In this document: positions 135 to 56,315 of the stretch, one piece after another | How the letters are laid out: every line of letters starts with the position of its first letter | Numbering within the stretch: position 1 is the first letter of the stretch | Assembly (NCBI GenBank): GCA_947561395.2 | Contig: OX387193.1 | Span: forward strand, 8,494,001 to 8,558,000 | Length of the DNA: 64,000 nucleotides | Origin: Buxus sempervirens | Lineage: Eukaryota; Streptophyta; Magnoliopsida; Buxales; Buxaceae | Reading direction: 5' to 3' | Program-made: the position numbers and the translations under genes | The notes under the pieces: generated by a model | Database searches by the model: none | The model's input: only the letters and a program-made list of their open reading frames with translations | What the model was told of the DNA's origin: nothing

Positions 135-2585
135 TTACCTCCTGACAGCTCCCTTTCGGGATCTACTCTTATCTCCTGTCAACCTCGGCGTGTCCTTTAC
201 TGACCAAGCCAACTTCTGGAGCTCCCTTGCCACCTTTTTATTAGCTTCCGTCTGTTCTTTGTGCTGAGCCTCTATGGCTGAGAAAAGTGCATAAGCTTCC
301 ATCTCAAAACCTTCAAATGAAAGCCCCAGAACTTGACTCATGAGCATTATCTTGTCCAGAATTTTTTCCGAATGGGACTGCTCTGATTGAGTCTCTTCCT
401 CTTGCACCTCTGACGGTCTCTGGTCTCTAACAAACTCTGGGGAACTAGGAGCCGGCCTCTTGGCAGCAATGGGGCTAACGTATACACTTGCTTCGTTGCA
501 CTCCACCAACTGCCAATTGCTGTACTTCAAATTCCCAGAATCATTCTCCTTGCAGGCAGCCTGTTCCTCTACATCCAACTGAGAGAAGCTCGGCAAGTCT
601 TCCACCACGTTCGACCAATTGACGACAACCTTATCGTGACTGCAGTCTCGACAATAGGTCTTCCTTTCCAGCAAGCTAGCACTTTCGTCTTCCTCCGAGA
701 TCGAGTTTCCTCCCACCTTCTCAGGCCCATCCACGAAGCATTCCGCACCAGATGAAGCCTCGTTCTGGCTACTAACCTCCTCCTCGTCGTGCGATGATAG
801 ACATCTGACCCTCGTCGGAATGTCGCCATCCTCCGCTGTGACCCCTTGAGAGATGGTGGTAGAAATGGGCGACGCGCTATAGCCTCCATCCTCGTCCTGC
901 CCATTCAGCTCTTGACGGACTCTATCCATCAGGTTGAGACGAAAGCCATCCTCTCCCAACTCGTTGATAACCTGGTCGCTCGGCACACCATCCCCTTGGT
1001 CAGACGATACATCAATGGCCTGGACGCTAGGCCCAAAAACCTCCTGCTCTCTCAACAGACGTGAGTCCAGATCGCGCGGCCCATCCGGCTCCTGGCCGCA
1101 CACACCAACACAGTCCTGGGCTGACGCCTGCTCTCGCCTAGCAACGTTCTCCAGGGCCGGCACCCTGTGAGAACCGACCTGCCTCCACTGCTGGGCCCCA
1201 GAGGAAGATTGGGCCCAACGCCCGATATTTTGAACTCTTTCAACGGTCACTGGCCCTGCATTAATGGGAACACCATTTGCATTGTTGCTGACCTCGACTG
1301 ACTCCCTGGCATGCCTCTGACGATGGGCCCCACCAGATACCCTGCGACTTGAGATGATGCTGGCCACGTCATCATCTTCTTCCTCCAGCAGCGTGTTCCA
1401 AGTTTGAACTGGTGCAGAATAGGCATCCGGCATAACCGATATAAACGTTTCAAAGACGTCTGAGCCATCCCAAATACAAATAGATGAAGGTATTCTGCGA
1501 GCAAAAACTTCCTTGACCTTCAAGACGAACTTACACAAATCATTTTGCATCAACTCGATGTTCCCGATCTCCACAATGCCTCCGCAAACTCCTCCTAACA
1601 ACGCCAGAGTTTTAGGGGCGAGTAGATGGAGTGGGACACCGACTATGGATATCCACATCCCTCCCGCCACAACGAGCCCCACATTTTGCCCACCCTGCAA
1701 TACTGGTCTATAGAAGCAAACCTTATGCTTTCCCCCGACTCGGAGCTCCTTCCTACGGATGAGTTGCTCCATATCTTCCTTACTTCGAGTAAAAATGACT
1801 GCTTTTTTGTCAGATATTTCTATGATAGAGCACTTTGGGTCCTGAATGCGACGCAGAGCCTCTTGAATTATTCCCCATCTGATTGTCTTAAATGGCTGAA
1901 AGCACATAACCGCTAAACTCCATTTATTATCTAACGGACATATACCCACCACTGGGCGCCACCCCATATTCTGAACCTGACCACAAACCCCATTTTGTTT
2001 AATAACATCTATTAAGTTCAACGAATGGGATTTCGATCTTAGTGTAGGTATCCTCCCATGGTCGATGGATGACCTGGGCTCATGCCTGCCTCTCGACTTC
2101 AACACCTCTTCAATGGCCTGACTGATATACCTCCATCCATTCTGCTGGAACTGCCTAGGAAAGATGAGGCTCCAGGTCGCCTTCGACTCAAACGCAGATA
2201 ACTGAAGAAATTGCCCCCACCTGTTCCTCCTTTTCTCCAGTACCATCTTCCGTGTTTCAGACCTAATAACGCTAACCACTTCATAATCCCCTGATTTATT
2301 TAACCTTGAATTAGTGTTACGCGCTAACCATCTCCACTCATCGTCATGCAGGACTAACCATCGTGAACGCCGGTAGCTCTTCTCAGTTATGCGAACAGAT
2401 TGGCAAGAAGCTCCAACAAAACCTTCGAACATGAATTCCTTCCGATGAAAACGTATCTGAGTCTTCCGAGTGCAGCCATTCAGGCTGTTGCCACCACTTC
2501 CGGATACTGGTAATGGCCTCCGATGAGTATTTCGACGACTTCTCCCACCTCCCAACTGGGGAGATGATCCATCTCTAACGGCCAT
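135..2585 (-). CDS. LINE retrotransposon ORF1 protein (DUF4283-like), intact
   Basis: An uninterrupted 816-aa frame. The N-terminal part is basic. Roughly residues 215-380 look like the DUF4283 domain common in plant LINE ORF1 proteins: a PFKTIRWGIIQEALRRI segment, a GGMWISIVGVPLHLLAPKT segment (the W-I-x-x-x-G-x-P-L-H motif) and a VCGGIVEIGNIELM segment. The C-terminal half is acidic and low complexity (repeated E/D, S and Q), with a charged stretch near the end. I saw no clear CCHC zinc knuckle. The family binds the element's RNA. The ORF2 start lies 45 bases downstream. The start ATG is the first in the frame, followed by MAVRDGSS. An undisrupted frame of this length suggests a fairly young insertion. 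Confidence 0.85.
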   Translation of the reverse strand: MAVRDGSSPQLGGGRSRRNTHRRPLPVSGSGGNSLNGCTRKTQIRFHRKEFMFEGFVGASCQSVRITEKSYRRSRWLVLHDDEWRWLARNTNSRLNKSGDYEVVSVIRSETRKMVLEKRRNRWGQFLQLSAFESKATWSLIFPRQFQQNGWRYISQAIEEVLKSRGRHEPRSSIDHGRIPTLRSKSHSLNLIDVIKQNGVCGQVQNMGWRPVVGICPLDNKWSLAVMCFQPFKTIRWGIIQEALRRIQDPKCSIIEISDKKAVIFTRSKEDMEQLIRRKELRVGGKHKVCFYRPVLQGGQNVGLVVAGGMWISIVGVPLHLLAPKTLALLGGVCGGIVEIGNIELMQNDLCKFVLKVKEVFARRIPSSICIWDGSDVFETFISVMPDAYSAPVQTWNTLLEEEDDDVASIISSRRVSGGAHRQRHARESVEVSNNANGVPINAGPVTVERVQNIGRWAQSSSGAQQWRQVGSHRVPALENVARREQASAQDCVGVCGQEPDGPRDLDSRLLREQEVFGPSVQAIDVSSDQGDGVPSDQVINELGEDGFRLNLMDRVRQELNGQDEDGGYSASPISTTISQGVTAEDGDIPTRVRCLSSHDEEEVSSQNEASSGAECFVDGPEKVGGNSISEEDESASLLERKTYCRDCSHDKVVVNWSNVVEDLPSFSQLDVEEQAACKENDSGNLKYSNWQLVECNEASVYVSPIAAKRPAPSSPEFVRDQRPSEVQEEETQSEQSHSEKILDKIMLMSQVLGLSFEGFEMEAYALFSAIEAQHKEQTEANKKVARELQKLAWSVKDTPRLTGDKSRSRKGAVRR

Positions 2586-2880
2586 AGGCGCACCCCACCA
2601 GCTACCAACTATAGGCCTTCGTGATTCGACGCAAGCGACCGCAACCTACGACCACAGGGGCGCTCTGTCTGAGTGTAGGTTGTCTTTCACAAATTATATT
2701 TAGAAAGCCACAAGCCGCCATCTTCTGATCCGATCCTAGTTGAAACTATTTCTATGAAGTTGACACGTGCCCTGAGGTTTCCACATCATCATCTCCTACC
2801 TTGAGACATTTCATGCAGCCTTCCACCATTTTTGCCTCTCGAAGGATCTATTCTACCTCTTACCAATTGAAAATGGGGGG

Positions 2881-4043
2881 GTATATGCCCTGCCAACGCA
2901 CACAAAATCCATTTTATCAATCCTCCTCATCTGCTTTTTGTGAAGAGTTGCCCAGACCATAGGTCAACCACTGTGAATGGGTGGTGCAAGCCTCTGTGAT
3001 GGACTGATATTTTATTAATGGTAATCTATTCAAGTAGGTTTCTCTTAAAAATGTCCTATGAGGTTTTGAAAAGATCTTCTGGAAATTTATTAGTGAAATA
3101 TGATGTAAATTTATGCTGATGAGCTGCATTTACATACACTTGGATGTCAGTAGAAAAGTGCTTTTTAACTAAATTTGGATATGCTTCGACACAATACCAC
3201 ATGGTTGTTTATGGGATTTGTGTCCAATCCAACACAGCCATGTCTTTTTCTTTTTCCTTTTTTTTTTGGCTATCATTAGTTCTTTCTTCTAAGAAGGTGC
3301 CTTCTGTATCTTCACTATATACCAAATTATAAAGTTTCAGGTGTAAGAACTGTAATATACATAGATGCTGCCATATTTTGAAATTTCTTAAGAAGTTCAA
3401 AATATTTATTCAGTAGATTGAATTCCTGTGTCCTATGATATGTGGAGTGAAGAGACCAAGACAATAAAAATCATCATATTTTGGTTTCTGGAAAACTTGC
3501 ACACTGACGTGTAAAAAAAGTTTATGCAAATACATGCACACACGCACAAAGACAGAAGCATGCACAGGAGTTTTCACAAAACCTTGGCCTTATTTCCATT
3601 GCAGATAATTTTTTTATTTTAGTATGTTGATATTTACGAAATATGAAGTAGCAGTAATTGACTTGGGGAGAGTATTTGTCCTGATGGAATCTGTGATGTT
3701 CTTATTAGCTGAGAATAGTGGTGGTAGATTTTTCAATCCATTTGTGACAATTTTAGCATCGGCTGCTCTTATTGCCGTGAATCTCATGGTGATTTTGTTA
3801 CTTATGATAAGCCACTCTTTAGCTGGACACTGAGAAGCATGAATATGAAAGGGGCAGAGGAAGTGACCTGTGTCTCTTGAGAAAAATTGTCATATTTTTC
3901 TGTGTGATGATTCAAGTGCATGTTACTTGGCAAATGAAGAAGTTTAGCTTCTTCTCAGCTAATGGTTAGCCTTGTTTCTAATGAGGTCTGTTTTTTTTCT
4001 CTCTTTTGTGTTGATTATATTCGGTGCTTGATACCGTGGTGCA
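2881..4043. other. AT-rich DNA between the LINE and the orphan exon
   Basis: I see no convincing coding exon here. Several short frames exist, for example one at 3624-3833 that would encode a hydrophobic peptide, but they are T-rich and have no recognisable family. If 4044-4202 is a terminal exon, this stretch is intron. Confidence 0.5.
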
Positions 4044-16260: not shown

Positions 16261-16501
16261 TTATGTGAATTACATGCCTAACCGTTGCTCCAAAAGCCCC
16301 AAGGTTTATGGAGATTTCGCTGGTTAAGCACTTAATATCTAGGACCGTAACATTCCACTAAGCTTCGGTAGCCGATGTCTACGGCGGCCAACTCTATCGA
16401 CACTGATTCGATGGTAGCCTTTCTATTTTGGCGGCTCTACTCATTTATTAATATTCAGTGACTTAACACTATGCCCATACATAATATTAAGGCATTTTAA
16501 T

Positions 16502-16854
16502 GGGAAAATTAACTTTTAGTGATACTTTCTCAAAATAACTAATATTCGGTCAGCAAAGTTTGAATTTTAATTTTTACTACACCTTTACCAAAATAATTAA
16601 TTTTTAGTACCATTTCAGTGTTAATAGTAATTTCTTCTAAAAATGCCCTTATACAACTTACTTTTGGGACTTGTACAAACAATAAAATGACTTGTACCTT
16701 GAATGAGTGACTTCTACAAGCCATTTGGATGAGTGATGTAAGGGCATTCTTAGAATAGTTGATTTGTAACAGTAAAATGTTACCAAAAATTAATTATGTT
16801 GATAAATGTTCATTAATTTTTTTGATAAAGTATCACAAAAAATTAACTTTCCCC
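16502..16854. mobile_element. hAT-like MITE nested in the TRIM, 353 bp
   Basis: TIRs of about 27 bp: the left end GGGAAAATTAAC...TAGTGATACTTT mirrors the right end (reverse complement GGGGAAAGTTAAT...TGTGATACTTT). A perfect 8-bp target-site duplication ATTTTAAT lies at 16494-16501 and 16855-16862, and removing the MITE plus one copy restores the TRIM interior seen intact at 29.2 kb. Related to the MITE at about 10465-10768. Confidence 0.85.
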
Positions 16855-16918
16855 ATTTTAATCCCCCCTATAAGCCGCCCCTTAGACGTGGTGTTTGGCT
16901 TCGATACCATTTGTTAAG

Positions 16919-17232
16919 CCCCCTTAGTGACTTAATATTAGTGGGACATGGCCATTTAAGAATGCAAGAAATTTTAGTAGGGTTTGCTGCTATTCCCTCT
17001 CTGGAAATTATATGCCCAAAGTATTCAATTTCATCACAACCAAAGCGACATTTGGATTTCCATGCATACAACTTATAAACCCTCAATAAGTCCAAAACAA
17101 TACGTTTGTGATCAAGATGCTCCTCTCCTGATTTATTATACACTACGATATCGTCAAAACATACCAATAGGCGTAGATAAGGTCGAAATGCCACATTCAT
17201 TAACCTTTGAAAAGTTGATGGAGTATTTGTTA
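16919..17232 (-). pseudogene. Ty3/gypsy reverse-transcriptase fragment inside a TRIM LTR
   Basis: The frame reads LTNTPSTFQRLMNVAFRPYL, then FDDIVVYNKSGEEHLDH, YAWKSKCRFGCDEIEYFGH and ILKWPCPTNIKSLRG. This corresponds to the gypsy RT core from GLTNAPATFQ through the FDDILVYS catalytic motif to the SLRGFLGL connection. Only about 105 residues are present, with no gag, protease or integrase nearby. Both ends abut TRIM LTR sequence, so it is a captured or inserted fragment and not a full element. Confidence 0.85.
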
Positions 17233-17253
17233 ATCTAGGACCGTAACATTATG

Positions 17254-18027
17254 CAAAGGGAATTTGGGATTTCGGATCAGAAATTATCTACAGCTATCTT
17301 AGACTAGTTTCTACTTTCTAGTTATGATATGGGTATCTTGTGTTTGCCGCTTTGTTATTTGATAGAATGCCTGATTGAGTCTCATCTTGGTGGGCTTCAT
17401 CGTTTGACGTGTATTTGAAGAATGTAATGATAGACATGGCACATTAGTCATTGGTGGGATTCATTGTTCATGGAATTCAGTTATTGATAGTTGTGAAAAT
17501 TATGAAAGGTTGGAAATTGCTCTTTGTTTGCTTGACCAAATAAGATGAGTTTCAGTTGTGCTTCTTTGAAAAAGTTCTTTGACTTCAAATTTTCATATTA
17601 AAATGATTACTAATTTCCATTTTTTCTTCTATAGATAGGTGATGTGATCAAATTTTTTTGGGTTCAGTTCCTTGTTAGTTTTCCATGTAAAATATAACTG
17701 ATGTGATCAAATGCTTCCATTTAGAGCCGAAATCTGAAATCCTTTTTATATTACTTTTTCTCTTCAATAGGATCTATCAAATGGTAGTCTCAATTATAAG
17801 ACCCATGTTCAAACTTAATTCAACTATGGAAATGCACGCACCATGTGTGTAGCAAATTTGAAAGAGAATTAAGGGCTTTTTGGGTATTGAAATGTTAGAC
17901 AGATAGTAATTTATATACCTGGCATTAACAAATAGATGTAGAATTTAATTTGACAAAAAGTGGAGGGCATTTTAGGCAACCCCTAAATCGTATATGATTT
18001 CATTAGTTATGATGGTGACATCAGATA
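17254..18027. other. Gene-free AT-rich stretch
   Basis: No conserved frame and no bounded element. Ends at a poly(T) run belonging to the LINE 3' end. Confidence 0.4.
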
Positions 18028-18475
18028 TTTTTTTTTTTTTTTTTTTGGAAATTAAGTAAGTTTGTATTTCAAAGAGTATAAGATTATGTACATCTAGCCA
18101 TATGGCTTACAAAAAAAACACCACATGCACTAGGCATGTCCACAACAGACTACCCAAAAGCAACAAAAGAGCCCAGGTGGTCACTATTTCTTAGAAGTCA
18201 AATAAATGAACAAACTTCAATGTTACCTCCATAGCAATACTTCTAACAGACTACCAAAAAAAGCAATACTTCTAACAATATCCTCTATAAGAGCTGCTTT
18301 ATTTTGAAATATGCGTCGATTCCTCTCCACCCAAATGTGATAAACCATAGAAGTAAAGAAGCTCTTTTGATTTGAGATAAAACACTCTTACCTTTGAGGT
18401 TGGAAACTGCCCACTCCATTACATTGTCCCAAGGTTCTGGAGACCTCCCAATGCAGTTTTTTCTCATAATAATGT
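18028..18475 (-). mobile_element. 5'-truncated LINE, 3' end with poly(A)
   Basis: A 19-base poly(T) run at 18028-18046 is the minus-strand poly(A) tail. Upstream of it on that strand the frame at 18467-18285 reads RSPEPWDNVMEWAVSNLKG, then SVLSQIKRASLLLWFI, resembling the C-terminal region of plant LINE ORF2 after the reverse transcriptase (PWDxLxxWA...KGKS...). Most of the element is missing, as is usual for truncated LINE insertions. The target-site duplication was not identified. Confidence 0.65.
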
Positions 18476-19694
18476 TAACTGAAAGAAGACGTAGGATAAC
18501 AAAACTGTAAAATGGGGAATAAAGGGAGGGTATTTTCAGTACAAAGTGCCAACCAGAAAACCCCCTCTTCGTTTTATAATAGTAATAGACTTAGTTTAGG
18601 TTTGAGATATCTAAATAATTTTTTTGTTACTTTTTATCATTTTGGTCTTATCTCCCCACCACCCATAATTCCCTTCAACTATTAATCTGTTGAAGACCTA
18701 AGAAACAAAAAATGGTTACTTTTTGTTCATGGTATTCTATCCTTATGAAGGAAAAACTACTTAGCTTTCTGCTTTTATGGAATGTCTTTACATAGTTGGA
18801 ATGGAATACATCCTGTGTGGTAATAAGAGTTCCATCAAATAAAATAAGATGCAAAACATAAGTTCCAAATACAGAAGAACAAAAGTCCATGGGAGAGAGA
18901 CACAGATGGAACTTTGTAATGCTTTGTTTGCAGACAACCATTTTTGTCACTTACCAGTTGGCCGCTTCTGGCTCTGCAGTGAAGCAGTTTCCAACAATAT
19001 CACGGGCTCTCCCAACACTTTGTTTTTGCTTTCTGTGTACTCATTGAATTGTACCATCTCATACCAGACCTATGAGAGGCTGTAATAATATTAAGTATAC
19101 AGCATCCATATATTTTCTCATAAATTCAGTGCCAGCTTGGATGGATGTTTTTGGGTTTTGTCACCAATGACAAAACCCATGGATTTGTGCAATTTTTGTA
19201 TGCTTGGAACAATCTCAAGTAATTAACAAAGAATAGAAAGAACAATTAGCATCTTAATCACTTGTCTTTAAAATTTGTGCATTTTTTTGCTTTATTTTGG
19301 AGGTTTAATCAGCAGATTAATCAAAACATCATCATGTTCCACTTCAGAAGGCAGACAAGTCTAAAGCAGTCTTGGAAGAAACTAGTTCTTTAATAAAGGA
19401 AACCCACATTGTTACACAGATAAGATTCAATTGATACAAGTAAATAGTAAGCGAAAATCGCTAAAAATGATCCTCTTCCCAAGCCCCATAGTTCAAGCTG
19501 CAACATCCAGTGCAAATGAACATTCAGAACAAACATTAATCCCAAGTAAAGAGGGTACAGCTTTTAAGAACATCAAATTCCTAGACATTTAACATTAGTG
19601 ATGGTTGTTAGCAGTGGCACCCCATTCCCCCAAATTTAAAAGTTGACAACACCTTTTGTTAGCAGGGAATGAGGAAAATGGTCATGGATGTACA
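18476..19694. other. Gene-free stretch downstream of the LRR gene
   Basis: AT-rich, with no conserved frame. Part near 19.6-19.7 kb is the 3' UTR of the minus-strand receptor gene. Confidence 0.4.
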
Positions 19695-22600
19695 TTAGGA
19701 ACTGCTACAGCACTTACCCAGTTCTTGATTCACCGCCTTCATGATTGGCCGATCACCGGGAGATTCATGGGTGCAAGACAATGCAATTCTTGCCAACTTA
19801 ATTGCCTCGGACTCAGAAAATTTCCCTTTAAGATTTGCATCAATGAAATCCTCAAATCTGCATGATTCAGCACCAAGTCGCATCGGATGAGTGATCGTCC
19901 GCTTCCCAGAGATAATCTGGAAAACAATCACCCCAAAAGCATATACATCACTTTTCTCCGTAAACCGACCAGTGGTGGTGTATTCTGGGGCTAAATACCC
20001 CATAGCTGCACTGGTTTTAAGTGTTGAGAAGACAATATCATCAACAAGGAGCTTCTGCAGGCCTGAGTCAGAGATTAGAGGGTTGAAACTTTTATCAATG
20101 AGCACCTTCTCGGCCGATATATTTTGGTGAACCAGAGCAGGCTTGTTTGTTCTGTTTCCATGTAGATACCCAATTCCTGTGGACAAAGAACATTATGTAT
20201 CCATGTAAGCAAACTCCAAAAATTCTTATATTTCAAGACTTTCTTTGACAGATCCATCCTCAGCAGATAATTGAGTGAAAAACAATCTAAAGATTTATGA
20301 ATAGAGATGTAATTAATACTGAAATTCTCATGACAATAGATGTGTGTCCTTGGTACCATGTGACCACGTACACTATATAAAGAAATGGTTCCATGCAATT
20401 CTCGTCATTAATAGAAAAGAAAAATGCTACAGGCAAGGCAATGAAGAATCCAATAAAATCAAAACGCAGCAACTTGATGATAAGAAGAAACATTAAGACT
20501 TAAACTAACCTTTGGCAATGCCATTGATAATAGAAACTCTAGTCGACCATTCAAGGATCCGACCATCTCCCTCCTCCAGATCAAAATAACAAGACAGGTT
20601 CCCATTAGGGACAAAATCATAGATAAGAAAACATTCACCCCTGCCTCTTGAACAGCAGAAACCTCTCAGTCCCACAAGATTTTCATGCCTCAATGAGGTC
20701 AATATGTGCAAACCCTTCAAAAACTCGGCTTCTTCAGATTTGCAACTAGTCTTGTTAATGCTTTTAATAGCAACAATAGACCCATCCCTCAGGATCCCCT
20801 TATATGTAGCTGAGAAGTTGCTCTTCCCCAACAAATTCACATCTGAGAAGTATTGAGTCGCAGACTCCACCTCCTCCAAATTGAACATAAATCTCAGCAG
20901 AAGCTCCTGTGAGAATCCATTGCCACTCCGACCATCAGCCAATGTATCCCAGCCAGTAGAGTATTCAAGGCTGATGAGAGGAGAGACATTCTTCCTGTAT
21001 ACATCCTTGGCCTGATCAGTACTAAGTCGACCATCAGATATATCAAATGAATTCCCAATCTTCTGCTTCTGACGACGATACCATGAGAATGTCAGAAGTC
21101 CAGTAGCTGTAACTCCAACAGTAATTGCAATAACACCAACAACAACAGCAATTGGATGGGTTCTTGATGAACTTGAGCAGCGGGTCTGGTTGCAATGTGT
21201 CTGGAGATTTGCTGACTCAGGGATATCTTTTGTAGCTATTCCACTTGTGCCTGATGCAAAAGGCTCAATACTCTTGGGATTCAGACTATTAGAAGTAGGG
21301 CAAACTCCTAATGATGAAAACCCAACTCCACATAAGCCTGTGTTGTTTTCATACTGAAACCCTACATTCAATCTCTTCAGAGCTGTATTTCATCCAGAAT
21401 ATTGATATTAGGCAGGTGCCGCAGGTCTATACATGCTTTAAACACGACATAAGGATATGAAAAGAATGGAAATTCAAATGAGAGAGGAATAAATCATATT
21501 ACCAGGAGGAACATTCCCAGAGAGAGTATTGTTTCGGATGTCAAGAACCTCAAGCCGAGGAACATTGGCTAATTTTACAGGAATTGACCCAAAGAGGTGA
21601 TTGAAGCTCAAATCTAGTCTTGTTAGCATCACCAGATCCCCTAAACTAGCAGGAATGGCTCCATTTAACTGATTATGCTGCAATACAACAACACTAAGCT
21701 TCTTTAAAGAACCTAACTGCGTAGGAATGCTCCCGTTCAACTGGTTACAACAAAGCTGCAAAACTACAAAACAATGGAAAATCAAGTTACAGAAACAGAA
21801 GACCAAAAACCCAAGATAGTTCAAAAAAATGCCTTCTAAATTAATTCTGATAACCTTTATGACAACAATTAATATCAGAAAATAAAGAAAATTTAGACAA
21901 GCTAAGTTGAACGGGCAAAAGACATTAGGCAGGGTCGAAACTTCTCTTTCTTTCAGTTCTACAACCAACCATGGAAACCGCACACACGACCACAGAAAAA
22001 GAAAACCATTCGTGGGGGAAAAAAAATAAAAAACCCAGAAATCCGTAACCCTGAAGCTCTCTTTCCATTACATTCAGCCATGCAGTAGATCCTGTAGACA
22101 ACACATTTGCGCTGCGCAAAGGAAAAAACTCAGATAAATCCCAAAAGGAGGGATGGAAACCCTTGGAACCACAAATTTGCGTCACAAAGATGAAGCTTTT
22201 TCACCCTCTCATCCAATGCTTCCCTAAGGAAGGAAAACCATTTTATGCTAATTTCAGAGAATAAGAATCCCTAAAATATAACATACCAAAAAGTTTCCTC
22301 TTCACAACATATACATTCAGCTCTTAAAGAAGCTTCCAAAAAATTCATTTGCTCAAAAACAAAGAGAATAACTTGACCTACAGAAGGAGAGGTAAAAGTC
22401 TTTCAAAATCTCATTTTTTGTCATGAAGATTGAAGCTTTTTCACTACGCTCAACTCCATACCTGACCTCAAGACTACATAACCTTCCAAATAAAATGAAT
22501 CAAACGAGGGGGGAAAAAAGGAAAAACATAACGAAGATCCAATTTTTTTCTTCAGAAACTTGCTACTAACCTTGAAGACTTGCCATGCTACCGATTTCAG

Positions 22601-23000
22601 GAGGAATAATCCCAGAAAGATTATTGACATCGAGATAGAGATCAGAGAGCTCAGTCAGATTCGAAATTTCTCTGGGTATTTCCCCAGATAAGGAATTATA
22701 ATGCAAGTAAAGCCCCGACAAGCATTTAAGCCCAGCCACAGCCGGAGGAACCTTGCCGGAAAGCCCCTTGCCCACCAACGAAATGTTGGCCACTTTACCA
22801 TGTTCGTTACAAGCAACACCCACAAAAGTCCCCATACACGGGCTACCGTCGCTGGTCCAAGACGAAAGGACCTTGTTTGCAGGGTCAAGAGCAGCTTTCA
22901 TCTCCATCAGAACTTTCAGCTCGGCATTCCCACGAACAGATTGCAGACCAGTACATGCAATGAAACTAAAAACAATGAAGAGCTCAACAAAGAAACCCAT
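19695..23000 (-). CDS. LRR receptor-like kinase, LRR-IV type, probable pseudokinase
   Basis: Four minus-strand exons: 23000-22571, 21763-21503, 21382-20510 and 20176-19695, in phase with GT-AG introns, giving 681 aa. A signal peptide (about residues 1-24) is followed by a cysteine-containing N-cap, then about six leucine-rich repeats (for example LSGLYLHYNSLSGEIP), a Ser-rich juxtamembrane region, a membrane segment at about 308-330 (PIAVVVGVIAITVGV), and a kinase-like domain from about 413. VAIK (Lys about 437) is kept. The catalytic HRD is replaced by HQN (about 538-540) and DFG by DSG (about 558-560), so catalysis is doubtful; from memory this degeneration is typical of the At5g51560/At2g45340-like group. 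The protein is probably a plasma-membrane co-receptor or scaffold. The glycine loop (LLGKSNFSATYKG) is also atypical. A GTAAGT overlaps the last codons near 19710, but the frame already ends naturally. Confidence 0.9.
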
Positions 23001-23159
23001 TTTCGTTTTTCACTCAGATGTCCACTTTCTCTGGTTCTGCTGGTTATTAATCCTCCTCCTCCTCCTCTCTCTCTATAGTTGTTTTTTCTGGGAATCCAAA
23101 GATCGAAGAGTTCGAATCTCGGCAACGAGGTCTGCAAGACAGCAAAAGTAACCCATCAA

Positions 23160-23183
23160 CCTCTCTCTCTCTCTCTCTCTCTC
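23160..23183. repeat. (CT)n microsatellite in the 5' region of the LRR gene
   Basis: About twelve CT dinucleotides, about 160 bases upstream of the start codon. On the transcribed strand this is a GA repeat in the 5' UTR or core promoter, common in plant genes. Confidence 0.8.
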
Positions 23184-23352
23184 TGTGACCGAGAACAAGA
23201 GAAGGCTGTGAGTTACAGATAGGTCCGTAGTTTTCGAAGTGATACAAAATCCCTACAAAATTACGTAGAAAAGAAAAAGGTGAACTTTTTTTGTTGTTTT
23301 CAACACAAAGGACGGCTTTAATGTCCTTAGGTGGCAGCTGAGTGGGACCCAT

Positions 23353-24931
23353 TTGACGGATCAGGTTAAAAGACGTACCAGAATCATTGTCGTATTGATC
23401 AAAACGTTCGGGACCGCTTGATAGACGCTCACATGTATATGCGAGTGGTGTTGCCTTAGAGTTTACTCAGACGCCGTAGATGGACGGACACCGCTCGGAA
23501 AGAAAAAAGATTTTTTTTTCTTTTTGAGTAAGTGCTCGCAAGTCACAAAGATGAACTTTGAACTTTGTCTTTGACTCTTCTGCATTGTTAAGTTAGGGTT
23601 TGTTATGACATAAATTGAGATGGGGGCGGGTTAGGGTCTTCTTGAACCCGCTCTGACCTTGCACCTAAACTTACCTTAATACGTTATTATTTATATGGAA
23701 TGACATCGTCAGTAACGTGGAGCATTTCACGATCAGTGTTTTTTTTCAAATAAGGCTCAAATGGCATAATTGTTTTTTTTTCAAGTGGAATCCACTTGAG
23801 AAAAAACAATGATCGTGAGATGCTCACGGTCATAAGAGCCTGCAATTGCTTGTCGGGAGCTTATTTGGTATGATGTAATTGCTTATCAGGGGAATGTTAG
23901 GGTTTGTCAAAGCCTGACCCGTTGCCATTCTTAATTGAACGTATACAATTACAAATTATGTTCCCACTCGAGGTGCAAAGGGTAACTGGGATTGGAGGAT
24001 GTTGTTTTCTCAGCTTTTTGTATTGATAGAGGATGGGATGAGGTTTGAATGTTAAAATTTACAAATAACATTGGTTTAACGATACTTCTCATATTTTCTC
24101 GCAATCCAAATGCAGTAAAGCCGTCTCTCAGCATGACGAGATAGAAAAATCCTGATAATGCTGCTGGACATTGAAGACGTATTGTTGAAGATGATAACCA
24201 TTATTTAGAAAGAGTACCGTCGGTAAGTTGCGAGCATTGCATTTCTCACCATGCAAAATCCGACCTCTAAGTACAAGAGAGAAAAAAAAAAAAAAAAAAA
24301 AAAAAAGCCTATTATTTTTCAATTTTTACTAAACAAACGGCACCTTAAGGGGTCTACTTTTCAAAAATACACTGTGTCCGACTAACAAGCGAAATTGGAT
24401 TTCAAATTCTTGAGTGTGATTACTTTTCTTATCGTCTGTCTGCAAAGGCAGAAAGGCTGTGGAATTCTGGCTCCGAACACTAAAAAAGGGTCGGTCCGTT
24501 CTGAACCGGCCACTCCTCTCAAAGCGGTACGTTTACCCTCGTGGTTCCTAAATTTTACGAGGATTACCCCTACTTTTCCCGTTTTCCAAGAGGCTCTTGC
24601 ATTGGAATCATTTTCCAATAGAAAAACTAGCGTGTTCAGTTGCGCCCACTGACATTTTCTTCGGGACGATAGTCAATGCGTGCTTAACCCTCAACTTCCT
24701 AAATATTACGAGAATACCCCTACCTTTTCCCACTTTCTCAGATACGAGTTGAGTCGGGTGACATTTCCGTGGACTACCGTCCGTTTTGTTGATAAACGAT
24801 GACGATGAGGCCACGTTTGTATATCGAGAAACCCTTTTTTTCCCCCTCTATGCTCATGAGAAATAGGCAAAATTAGGTGGCATTCCTACTTTATAAAATA
24901 AATTAAAATTAAGTGAACATTTTAAAATACT
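23353..24931. other. Gene-free stretch with short duplications
   Basis: Contains a poly(A)-like run at about 24280-24306, and a roughly 57-bp direct repeat (TTCCTAAAT..TTACGAG...ACCCCTAC) at about 24542-24592 and 24698-24742. Near 23.70-23.83 kb are inverted copies of an ACGATCA/TGATCGTGAG-type segment also seen at 26.07-26.15 kb. No gene. Confidence 0.5.
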
Positions 24932-29093: not shown

Positions 29094-29478
29094 TGTTACG
29101 GTCCTAAATGTTAAGTGCTTAACTAACAAAGTCTTCTTAAACCTTGGGGCTTTTGGAGCAACGATTAGGCACATAACAAATGGTATCAAAGCCAACCACC
29201 ACGTCTCGAGTTTAAGTCGTGGAGGGGGCGACCTATAAGTTGGATTAAAATACCTTGGTATTATGTATGGGTATAGTGCTAAGTCATCAAATACTGATAG
29301 ATGAATGAAACTTCCAAGAGAGAAAGGGCTACCTCCGGGTTAGTGTTGATAGAGTGAGCCACTGTGGACGTTGGCTGTAACAGTGTGGTAGAATGTTACG
29401 GTCCTAAATATTAAGTGCTTAACCAATGAAGTCTCCATAAGCCTTGAGGCTTTTGGAAAAACGATTAGGCATGTAACA
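29094..29478 (+). mobile_element. TRIM retrotransposon, complete, 385 bp
   Basis: Two 85-bp LTRs (29094-29178 and 29394-29478) begin TGTTACGGTCCTAAAT and end TAACA; by hand count they differ at about 12 positions. Two bases after the 5' LTR is TGGTATCAAAGCC (29181-29193), a primer-binding site for initiator Met-tRNA. The interior is 215 bp and non-coding. The perfect 5-bp duplication GTTAT lies at 29089-29093 and 29479-29483. The small size, LTR/PBS layout and absence of genes define a terminal-repeat retrotransposon in miniature. LTR divergence suggests an old insertion. Same family as the element at 16266-17248. Confidence 0.9.
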
Positions 29479-43000: not shown

Positions 43001-45103
43001 TTATATAATTAAATAAAATAATTGGTAATAGGCGACCGCCAAGGCCAAAAAGGTGATAAGGCAACCGCCTTATTGGCCAGGTGGTCGCCTATTCACATAG
43101 GCGCTAGCCCAGGCGAGAACGGCCTAGGCGAGTTTCACCTAAGCTTTTTTAAAAACTCCTAGGCGCTTAGGCGAGCACCTTTAATAACAATGAATCTAGG
43201 TTAGGGCATTTGAAATAGAAGGGGAAAGAAGAAGAAAGAATATATAGGAATGGGAAGCTCTGAAAATCCATTGTGTTGTTCCCACACTCAATACCTTTAT
43301 ATTTGTGGGCTTGCCAATAATAGCCTCATTAAATCAAAAGAAGAATGCAGTATATATGTTTAAAAAAGGTTAAATCAATAGAAGGATTATCAGATAGGGA
43401 TACTTAAACTGTAACTGCAGAATGTCCTTCCAGATGTCTGAAAGAAGAATGCAGTATATATGTTTAAAAAAGGTTAAATCAATAGAAGGATTATCAGATA
43501 GGGATACTTAAACTGTAACTGCAGAATGTCCTTCCAGATGTCTGAAAGAAGAATGCAGTATATATGTTTAAAAAAGGTTTAATCAATAGAAATATTATCA
43601 GATAGGGATACTTAAACTGTAATTGCAGAATGTCCTTCCAGATGTCTGAATCTTTTGAATTAAGAAACATAACGAAGTTATAAATTAACAGCACATTGTT
43701 CATTAAATTTTTTTATGTGAATGATGCAACACTTATATAAATGCTCAAGAATTCAGGAGACCATATAAACATATTCATTTACTTGCTTAAAGATAGTGAC
43801 ATTGTTTATTTCGTACAGAATCTTAGGGCAGTTTTTCTTTTTCTTTTTTTTTTTAGTTTTACTCTAGTCTAAGTATATGCATCTTTCATGTTGTATTTTG
43901 TGCTATGTCAACCATCATGCTGGTTTTTATAGTTTATTGCATAATCTGTGCAAAGCATCATTTTCTGAAAGCTCAGCCGATGTTGATTAGGCTGAACTAT
44001 CTGCAATTGACAGGTACATCTTTATGGAACAGCCCTTGGAGGCTTCTTAGCACAACTTTTCGCTCAGCATCGCCCAAGGCGGGTCAGATCATTGATAATC
44101 TCTAATTCATTCTTGGATAGCAGCAGTTTCTCGGCTGCAATGCCATGGGCTCCAATGTATGTCACCTTGTATCCTTTCTCATGCATGGTAACTTGAGATG
44201 ACCAATTTTCTTACCTGTAATATTATTCTTATTATTATTGCTAGTATTTGTTATGTATTCTCCCTGCAAGAATAACCAGAGATTGGTATCAATATTGAGT
44301 GCTTGAACTGTCTCCTTTGTTAGTGGGATTGTCAGGTTCACTGCTGTATTTCACATGTGTAAGGCTATATTTATCTGTTTGATTCAGAGCAAAAAAGTCA
44401 TGCATATTATGCTCAATGTTGATGCTGCAGGCTAAAAGCATTACTTTGATAACAACTCAATATCCGGGTTAAAATGATCTGAAGAAATATGTCTGTCTGA
44501 CCCCATTACAACTCTATTGGCAAACCATGCCTGTTAAGTTCCTCTTTGGTACCTAGATGCTCATTAGTCTGGCTAAAGTGTTGAAGAATTGAGGAAAAAG
44601 TGCTTAAAGAGAGAATCAGAGAGAGAGAGAGAGAGAGATGAAAGAAGTGGATGAGGTGATCTATGGATTGGCTCATTCTTCTTTATTCTGAATGGATTTG
44701 ATGGAGGTTCTTTCATCCTGAATGGGTCTGTTTGGCTCTTCTTTGATGTCTTGGTGCTGACTAATCTCTCCAAGTTATCCACAAGTGAAAGAAAAAAAAG
44801 AGTAGAAAGAGAGATGGAAGCAGCAGATTAGGGGAGGTATTAGGAGTGCATCATTTTCATTTATCCTCACTGGGTCTTTAGATATATCTTTTAGCTCTTT
44901 TAACTGCTCTAGGAAGGGACTAATTTCCTTCCTCTTCACTCTTGTGTTGATGTTCCTAGCATCTTTTCTATTCTAGCTGAGGAGCATAGGCTTCACAGTT
45001 GGTATGGACAAAGTATCTATCTCCCACTTTATGTTGTTGATAATACAATCATTTTTTTTAGTACTTCTTGTGATTAAGTCTCTCTCCCTCCCCCACCACC
45101 GCG

Positions 45104-51979: not shown

Positions 51980-56315
<4,336 letters not shown>

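What the first reader, a model, noticed from the sequence alone, without database searches (positions are those of the whole stretch)
16266..17248. TRIM retrotransposon carrying a Ty3/gypsy RT fragment inside its 5' LTR, split by a MITE
The element has intact 5-bp TTATG duplications, a recognisable 3' LTR and a PBS, but its 5' LTR is about 337 bp against 87 bp because the gypsy RT core (LTNTPSTFQ to SLRG) sits between the first 16 bases and the last few bases of the LTR. A TRIM cannot code for its own RT, so an RT fragment embedded in its LTR is striking. It may result from template switching during reverse transcription of a gypsy helper transcript, which would give physical evidence of which family mobilises this TRIM. 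A MITE with its own 8-bp duplication then inserted in the interior, which orders the events.
Basis: partly seen in the sequence, partly recalled or inferred. Interest (0 to 1): 0.72.

Follow-up and report, generated by a model that had tools for sequence, protein, structure and literature searches.

The report
Miniature retrotransposon with patched-in gypsy fragment
In a plant chromosome, an old, tiny, non-coding jumping element lost most of one of its end repeats, and a 300-base piece of a different, rare retrotransposon now fills the gap; it is a real but one-off scar, most simply read as DNA-break repair, and it does not show which element moves the tiny one.

Summary
The anatomy is confirmed. 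On the minus strand, 17248-16266 is a copy of an abundant TRIM family (ordinary copies about 385 bp, 85-bp LTRs) with TTATG duplications, an 87-bp 3' LTR and a PBS. Its 5' LTR keeps the first 16 and about the last 5-12 bases; the middle is replaced by about 305 bp of Ty3/gypsy reverse transcriptase. A MITE with a 9-bp duplication sits in the interior. The junction occurs once in the 676-Mb assembly. Close gypsy relatives are few: four matches at three loci, 8-11% substituted. The full-length one gave no TRIM hit and has other LTR termini. The fragment has drifted neutrally, roughly as long as the TRIM copy. An exact 9-bp repeat brackets it. None of 54 other sampled TRIM copies showed this arrangement. 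Reverse transcription copies the same information into both LTRs, so a change in the 5' LTR alone is most simply a deletion with templated filler after insertion. Template switching during plus-strand strong-stop synthesis is possible but less likely, and would not by itself identify the helper. A well-preserved example of a known kind; low to moderate interest.

The parts
16261..16265 (.). target-site duplication TTATG (3' side of element)
   Evidence: sequence
16266..16352 (-). 3' LTR of the TRIM, 87 bp (TGTTACGG...GTAATTCA)
   Evidence: 44 match rows, itself included (715 candidates, 40 scored)
16353..16492 (-). TRIM interior, 3' part up to the 3' LTR
   Evidence: 16270-16501 is 74-88% identical to the 18 copies compared, 15 of 18 at 82% or more
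16493..16501 (.). 9-bp duplication CATTTTAAT of the MITE
   Evidence: sequence; flanks printed
16502..16853 (.). MITE, 352 bp, terminal inverted repeats (42 nt, 86% complementary)
   Evidence: I2; many genomic copies at 80-86%, 25 compared
16854..16862 (.). 9-bp duplication CATTTTAAT, second copy
   Evidence: sequence
16863..16896 (-). TRIM interior 3' of the PBS; about 15 bp shorter than in other copies by reading of the alignment
   Evidence: alignment
16897..16909 (-). primer-binding site TGGTATCGAAGCC (family: TGGTATCAGAGCC)
   Evidence: alignment to other copies; tRNA-iMet type is recalled
16912..16920 (-). retained tail of the 5' LTR; exact limit ambiguous
   Evidence: BLAST to L033 positions 75-113 reaches 16922
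16921..17224 (-). Ty3/gypsy reverse-transcriptase fragment in place of the middle of the 5' LTR (outer limits 16916-17232)
16909..16917 (.). ATTTGTTAA direct repeat at inner junction
   Evidence: sequence
17225..17233 (.). ATTTGTTAA direct repeat at outer junction
   Evidence: sequence
17233..17248 (-). first 16 bases of the 5' LTR, identical to the 3' LTR start
17249..17253 (.). target-site duplication TTATG (5' side)
   Evidence: sequence

Best explanation
A TRIM inserted here normally, with two LTRs and a 5-bp duplication. Later a break inside its 5' LTR removed about 60-70 bases, and repair copied about 305 bases from a rare gypsy element elsewhere in the genome into the gap (templated filler, as in synthesis-dependent strand annealing with short microhomology). 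A MITE inserted in the interior at some time after the TRIM. Shown: the anatomy, the duplications, the donor family, the single occurrence and the neutral drift. Inferred: that the replacement came after insertion, and the repair route.
For: Only one LTR is changed. Reverse transcription gives both LTRs the same information (stated in PMC1950507, whole text read), so a lesion of one LTR points to a post-insertion event. The junction is unique: one exact place and no other at up to 3 mismatches in the assembly, and the inner-junction query has only itself as candidate. The donor piece has no gypsy termini; the close relatives continue as RT on both sides. A 9-bp exact repeat brackets the piece; 0.33% of 19,984 random pairs of 25-base stretches share a word of 9 or more (a test made after seeing the repeat). 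Altered 5' ends are common in copies of this TRIM: 16 of 54 other copies in my sample did not pass the screen for an ordinary 5' LTR start and PBS, although some of those 16 are complete elements. Filler-bearing deletions are an ordinary plant outcome: 13% of deletions in a barley comparison (PMC3706897, passages), and foreign segments at 58 of 94 putative excision events in rice (PMC4423477, passages).
Against: The filler is long: the rice fillers averaged 13 bp and ranged to 123 bp. The replacement is confined within one LTR and spares its first 16 bases and the PBS, which a template switch would also need. The fragment's private branch (0.082) is about as long as that of the TRIM 3' part (0.090), so capture at the time of insertion is also allowed. 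None of the 54 other sampled copies shows such a patch, so patching is not a frequent fate of these LTRs either. No empty or unpatched allele could be examined.
Confidence: 0.62

Rival explanations
1. Double template switch during plus-strand strong-stop synthesis: after copying the first 16 LTR bases the enzyme moved onto gypsy minus-strand cDNA in the same particle, copied about 305 bases, and returned to the LTR end and PBS; the cDNA then integrated with only its 5' LTR chimeric.
For: 5-bp duplications surround the whole chimera. The gypsy piece is in sense orientation relative to the TRIM. Terminal bases and PBS are kept. The ages of fragment and TRIM agree within error. Template-switch chimeras of plant LTR elements are in print: Angela complexes (PMC1950507), and Veju and BARE-2 as told in PMC13317346 (passages).
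Against: It needs two switches within one short synthesis step and a DNA template. A switch during minus-strand synthesis would be expected to mark both LTRs, and the 3' LTR is normal. No other copy carries the junction. Close gypsy relatives are few.
Confidence: 0.22
2. Two separate accidents: first a deletion within the 5' LTR, then insertion of a gypsy fragment at the leftover LTR end with a 9-bp duplication.
For: The exact ATTTGTTAA repeat on both sides of the gypsy piece. 5' LTR truncations near the LTR end exist in other copies (L088, L106).
Against: The outer repeat lies where gypsy itself has a similar sequence (6 of 9 bases, counted by hand from the alignment), so it may not be a duplication. 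It requires two events.
Confidence: 0.12
3. Assembly error joining two loci.
For: No raw reads could be examined; the junction is seen once.
Against: The gypsy piece is 8-11% substituted against the four close matches found, so it is not a misplaced copy of any of them; both TTATG repeats are in place.
Confidence: 0.04

Closest known systems
TRIM elements that captured gene fragments (Gao et al. 2016, PMC4717578, section 13 read in full)
   Same: Small LTR element with 5-bp duplication carrying a foreign coding fragment.
   Different: There 30 elements of seven subfamilies carry exon pieces in the internal region, all but two with two or more copies; here the fragment is retrotransposon RT, lies inside one LTR, and is single copy.
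Template-switch LTR chimeras: Veju and BARE-2 (as told in PMC13317346 passages), Angela complexes (PMC1950507)
   Same: Sequence of another origin joined into an LTR element; the Angela complexes too are flanked by one target duplication.
   Different: The Angela complexes have closely matching outer LTRs, and Veju and BARE-2 variants form groups of copies; here the two LTRs disagree and there is one copy.
Filler DNA at double-strand breaks repaired by SDSA in plants (PMC3706897 passages; PMC4423477 passages)
   Same: Deletion plus foreign filler.
   Different: This filler is longer than those in the rice excision set (1-123 bp).
TRIMs with small-RNA sequences in the LTR (Cassandra, Helenus, Ajax; PMC10886601 abstract and passages)
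   Same: Foreign sequence residing inside a TRIM LTR.
   Different: There it is a promoter-bearing small-RNA gene in the LTRs of whole families; here a dead RT piece in one LTR of one copy.

Membership tests
TRIM (terminal-repeat retrotransposon in miniature) | Under 1 kb, two short direct terminal repeats TG...CA | tested here: met
   18 distinct copies of about 384-389 bp (two of 426 and 433 bp) with LTRs of about 85 bp; this copy has one full LTR and one chimeric
TRIM (terminal-repeat retrotransposon in miniature) | 4-6 bp target-site duplication | tested here: met
   TTATG at 16261-16265 and 17249-17253
TRIM (terminal-repeat retrotransposon in miniature) | PBS after 5' LTR | tested here: met
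   TGGTATCGAAGCC here, TGGTATCAGAGCC or near it in other copies
TRIM (terminal-repeat retrotransposon in miniature) | No coding capacity in family copies | not tested
   No ORF or domain search was run on ordinary copies; a length of about 385 bp leaves little room for a protein
Ty3/gypsy RT | RVT_1 domain similarity | tested here: met
   E 7.1e-11, 42.6 bits against a cutoff of 29.6
Ty3/gypsy RT | Donor family is an LTR element with pol; gypsy rather than copia | tested here: inconclusive
   L063 holds direct repeats of about 390 bp, 91% identical, 4.8 kb apart start to start, around RT-bearing ORFs. The label Ty3/gypsy rests on recalled RT motifs, not on a tree or domain order
Helper relation (gypsy mobilises TRIM) | Related LTR sequence or termini | tested here: not met
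   No TRIM hits in L062-L064 at E 1e-4; in L063 only 10-16-nt matches, best E 0.025 in the rows shown; termini differ by eye
Template-switch chimera | Both LTRs derived from one reverse transcription and alike | tested here: not met
   5' LTR chimeric, 3' LTR ordinary
Template-switch chimera | Chimera found at further sites (supporting, not required) | tested here: not met
DSB-repair filler | Unpatched related allele | not testable with these tools
   No relative genome held; the 5' flank next to the element had no match among the 40 scored of 473 candidates; the 3' flank search did not complete

The most novel reading that the evidence does not exclude
A gypsy cDNA was copied into the plus-strand strong-stop DNA of a TRIM inside a shared particle, leaving a one-LTR chimera that records co-packaging of this TRIM with this rare gypsy family.
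Probability: 0.18. Interest if true: 0.5.

Novelty: new member of a known kind. Interest (0 to 1): 0.22.

Why it matters
If it were a reverse-transcription chimera it would be a rare record of co-packaging of a TRIM with an autonomous element. [quoted passage not shown] As repair filler it is a clean small example of how plant genomes patch breaks with retrotransposon sequence, and a caution against reading embedded fragments as helper evidence.

Tried and rejected
Simple nested gypsy insertion: rejected as a whole-element insertion, since the piece has no gypsy ends and its close relatives continue as RT on both sides. Coding function of the fragment: the frame is open, but private changes are 16 nonsynonymous to 5 synonymous (76%) against a neutral expectation of 79% changing a residue or making a stop, so it looks neutral; two of the other gypsy copies also look relaxed (9 to 2 and 7 to 4), so drift does not single out the fragment. 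The two 'stops' that call counted come from single-change bookkeeping in doubly changed codons.

Dating: a first tree on all retained TRIM parts gave this copy a branch of 0.161; I dropped it because the stretch around the MITE duplication and the short deletion is misaligned, and used the clean 3' part (0.090). By another measure, bases seen in no other copy, this copy has 8 of 220 (3.6%), not comparable with the fragment because many more relatives were at hand. Dating the MITE: one search gave a branch of 0.245, but the first 37 bases align poorly, so I do not use it.

Base rate: a first automatic screen of TRIM 5' ends did not flag the window chimera; it was replaced by a stricter one. In that screen 38 of 55 distinct interior cores have an LTR start and PBS at the usual places; 16 others and the window copy do not. 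LTR-like starts further upstream appeared in five of the other loci and I judged none the same arrangement: L056 is a complete 433-bp element, L079 has no PBS at the usual place, L089 holds overlapping copies, L039 and L083 matched with 4 errors. Only 450 bases upstream were held for L099-L108 and 650 for L079-L098, so longer inserts would be missed. The 55 cores come from 29 loci, 30 loci (picked from 100 places listed of 186 found) and the window; it is a sample, and the loci were chosen by LTR similarity. Viral contig search for the RT piece: nothing. Rfam at gathering scores: nothing. tRNA scan: nothing. An RNase-H-like stretch beside the cut TRIM copy L088 reached only RVT_3 E 0.14, so it is not claimed.

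Full report
The window lies in a 676.5-Mb assembly of 247 contigs (C19:8494001-8558000).

What is there. On the minus strand the element runs from 17248 to 16266, between TTATG repeats. Its 3' LTR (87 bp) belongs to an abundant family: a search with it gave 715 candidates, of which 40 were scored, and 44 match rows including itself. An interior 20-mer occurs 186 times with up to one mismatch, 0 times for the reversed control. Eighteen distinct copies with both LTRs were cut out; 16 measure about 384-389 bp and two 426 and 433 bp, with LTRs of about 85 bp, TGTTACGGTCCTA(A/G)ATG...CGTAACA, then AA and TGGTATCAGAGCC in the typical copy. One more complete copy is in this window at 29094-29478. The 5' and 3' LTRs of these 19 copies differ at 2 to 12 of 83-85 positions, so most insertions are not recent.

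The chimera. The 5' LTR begins with the exact first 16 bases, continues with about 305 bp of gypsy RT in sense orientation, and ends with the last few LTR bases before AA and the PBS. Exact limits are soft: gypsy homology by BLAST covers 17230-16916, and LTR homology from the other side reaches 16922 against one copy. An exact 9-bp repeat, ATTTGTTAA, lies at both joins (0.33% of 19,984 random pairs of 25-base stretches from the window share a word of 9 or more; the test was made after seeing the repeat). The outer copy falls where gypsy reads CTTACCAAT, 6 of 9 alike by hand from the alignment, so it may be a duplication, a microhomology or partly chance. The normal LTR also holds GCTTAACCAA about 24 bases from its start, similar to that gypsy stretch (read from the alignment); a join through it is possible.

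The donor. All 8 candidates of the RT-only search were scored: the window itself, an inverted pair at C19:30.93 Mb (90% by BLAST), C19:6.96 Mb (88%), C8:46.06 Mb (87%) and three distant ones at 66-73%. Substitutions without gaps are 8.1%, 10.3% and 11.3% for the close ones, and the two of the pair are identical to each other. So the family is rare at this sensitivity. The C19:6.96-Mb copy is bounded by direct repeats of about 390 bp, 91% identical, with a PBS-like TGGTATTAGAGCCC after the first. No TRIM hit was found in the three fetched gypsy loci at E 1e-4; in L063 the short matches shown were 10-16 nt, best E 0.025. The chimeric junction has no second occurrence.

Ages. The fragment's private branch is 0.082, that of the TRIM 3' part 0.090 over 222 bases (a first, misaligned tree had given 0.161). 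With about 20 changes each the errors are large (my estimate), and the fragment's branch may include time before capture. Its private changes, 16 nonsynonymous to 5 synonymous, match neutral drift, as do those of two of its gypsy relatives. The fragment is thus not a recent arrival, which fits capture at or not long after insertion.

Mechanism. Reverse transcription copies the same U3, R and U5 into both LTRs (PMC1950507; details of the plus-strand step are recalled). A switch during minus-strand synthesis would therefore be expected to give two chimeric LTRs. A 5'-only chimera needs a double switch during plus-strand strong-stop synthesis, or an event after integration. The second is simpler, and filler-bearing deletions are ordinary in plants (13% of deletions in barley, PMC3706897, passages; foreign segments at 58 of 94 putative excisions in rice, PMC4423477, passages). 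Against it, this filler is longer than the rice ones, whose maximum was 123 bp. In a sample of 55 distinct TRIM cores, 38 have an ordinary 5' LTR start and PBS, 16 others do not pass that screen, and only the window copy shows an exact LTR start followed by foreign DNA, LTR tail and PBS. So damage to 5' ends is common but a patch like this one is not. Among the 16, L088 and L106 are cut within about the last dozen LTR bases, the same zone as the inner join here. That is a small hint that the LTR-PBS boundary is fragile or a switching point; it was not followed further.

Literature. Four searches listed no report of an RT fragment inside a TRIM LTR: titles and abstract beginnings of 20 of 64 papers, 20 of 115, 10 of 10 and 8 of 116. 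Most subscription papers are not in that library. TRIM gene capture in the interior, template-switch LTR chimeras and foreign small-RNA sequences in TRIM LTRs are all in print.

Verdict. The structure is real; the kind of event is known; the helper inference is not supported.

Noticed in passing
window 29094-29478 (+): A second, complete copy of the same TRIM family, with ordinary LTRs.
   Followed up: yes
window 55536-56075 (+): ORF matching plastid Ycf2 (E 2.3e-53), probably plastid DNA in the nuclear genome.
   Followed up: no
window 19695-23466 (-): LRR receptor-kinase gene pieces (LRR and kinase domains), about 2.4 kb from the element.
   Followed up: no
window 138-2645 (-): Long 836-aa frame with a DUF4283 match just under the curated cutoff, perhaps a retroelement protein.
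   Followed up: no
window 43337-43650: Tandem repeat of about 104 bp, about three copies, 96-98% alike (self-comparison).
   Followed up: no
L064 (C19:30922500-30932400), 3629-3950 and 6063-5742: Two gypsy RT segments, identical over 317 bp, lie inverted about 1.8 kb apart, suggesting a recent inverted duplication.
   Followed up: partly
L088 about 560-570 and L106 about 355-365: Two other TRIM copies lose their 5' LTR within about the last dozen bases before the PBS; beside L088 lies a weak RNase-H-like stretch (RVT_3 E 0.14, below cutoff).
   Followed up: partly
window 17815-18597: Upstream flank holds one repeat split by another: query parts 9-119 and about 575-786 are nearly adjacent in other genomic copies but about 450 bp apart here.
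   Followed up: no
TRIM family interior just 3' of the PBS (e.g. L033): GGGTTCGAGTCTCG resembles a Pol III B box (recalled motif); about 15 bp around it are missing in the window copy.
   Followed up: no
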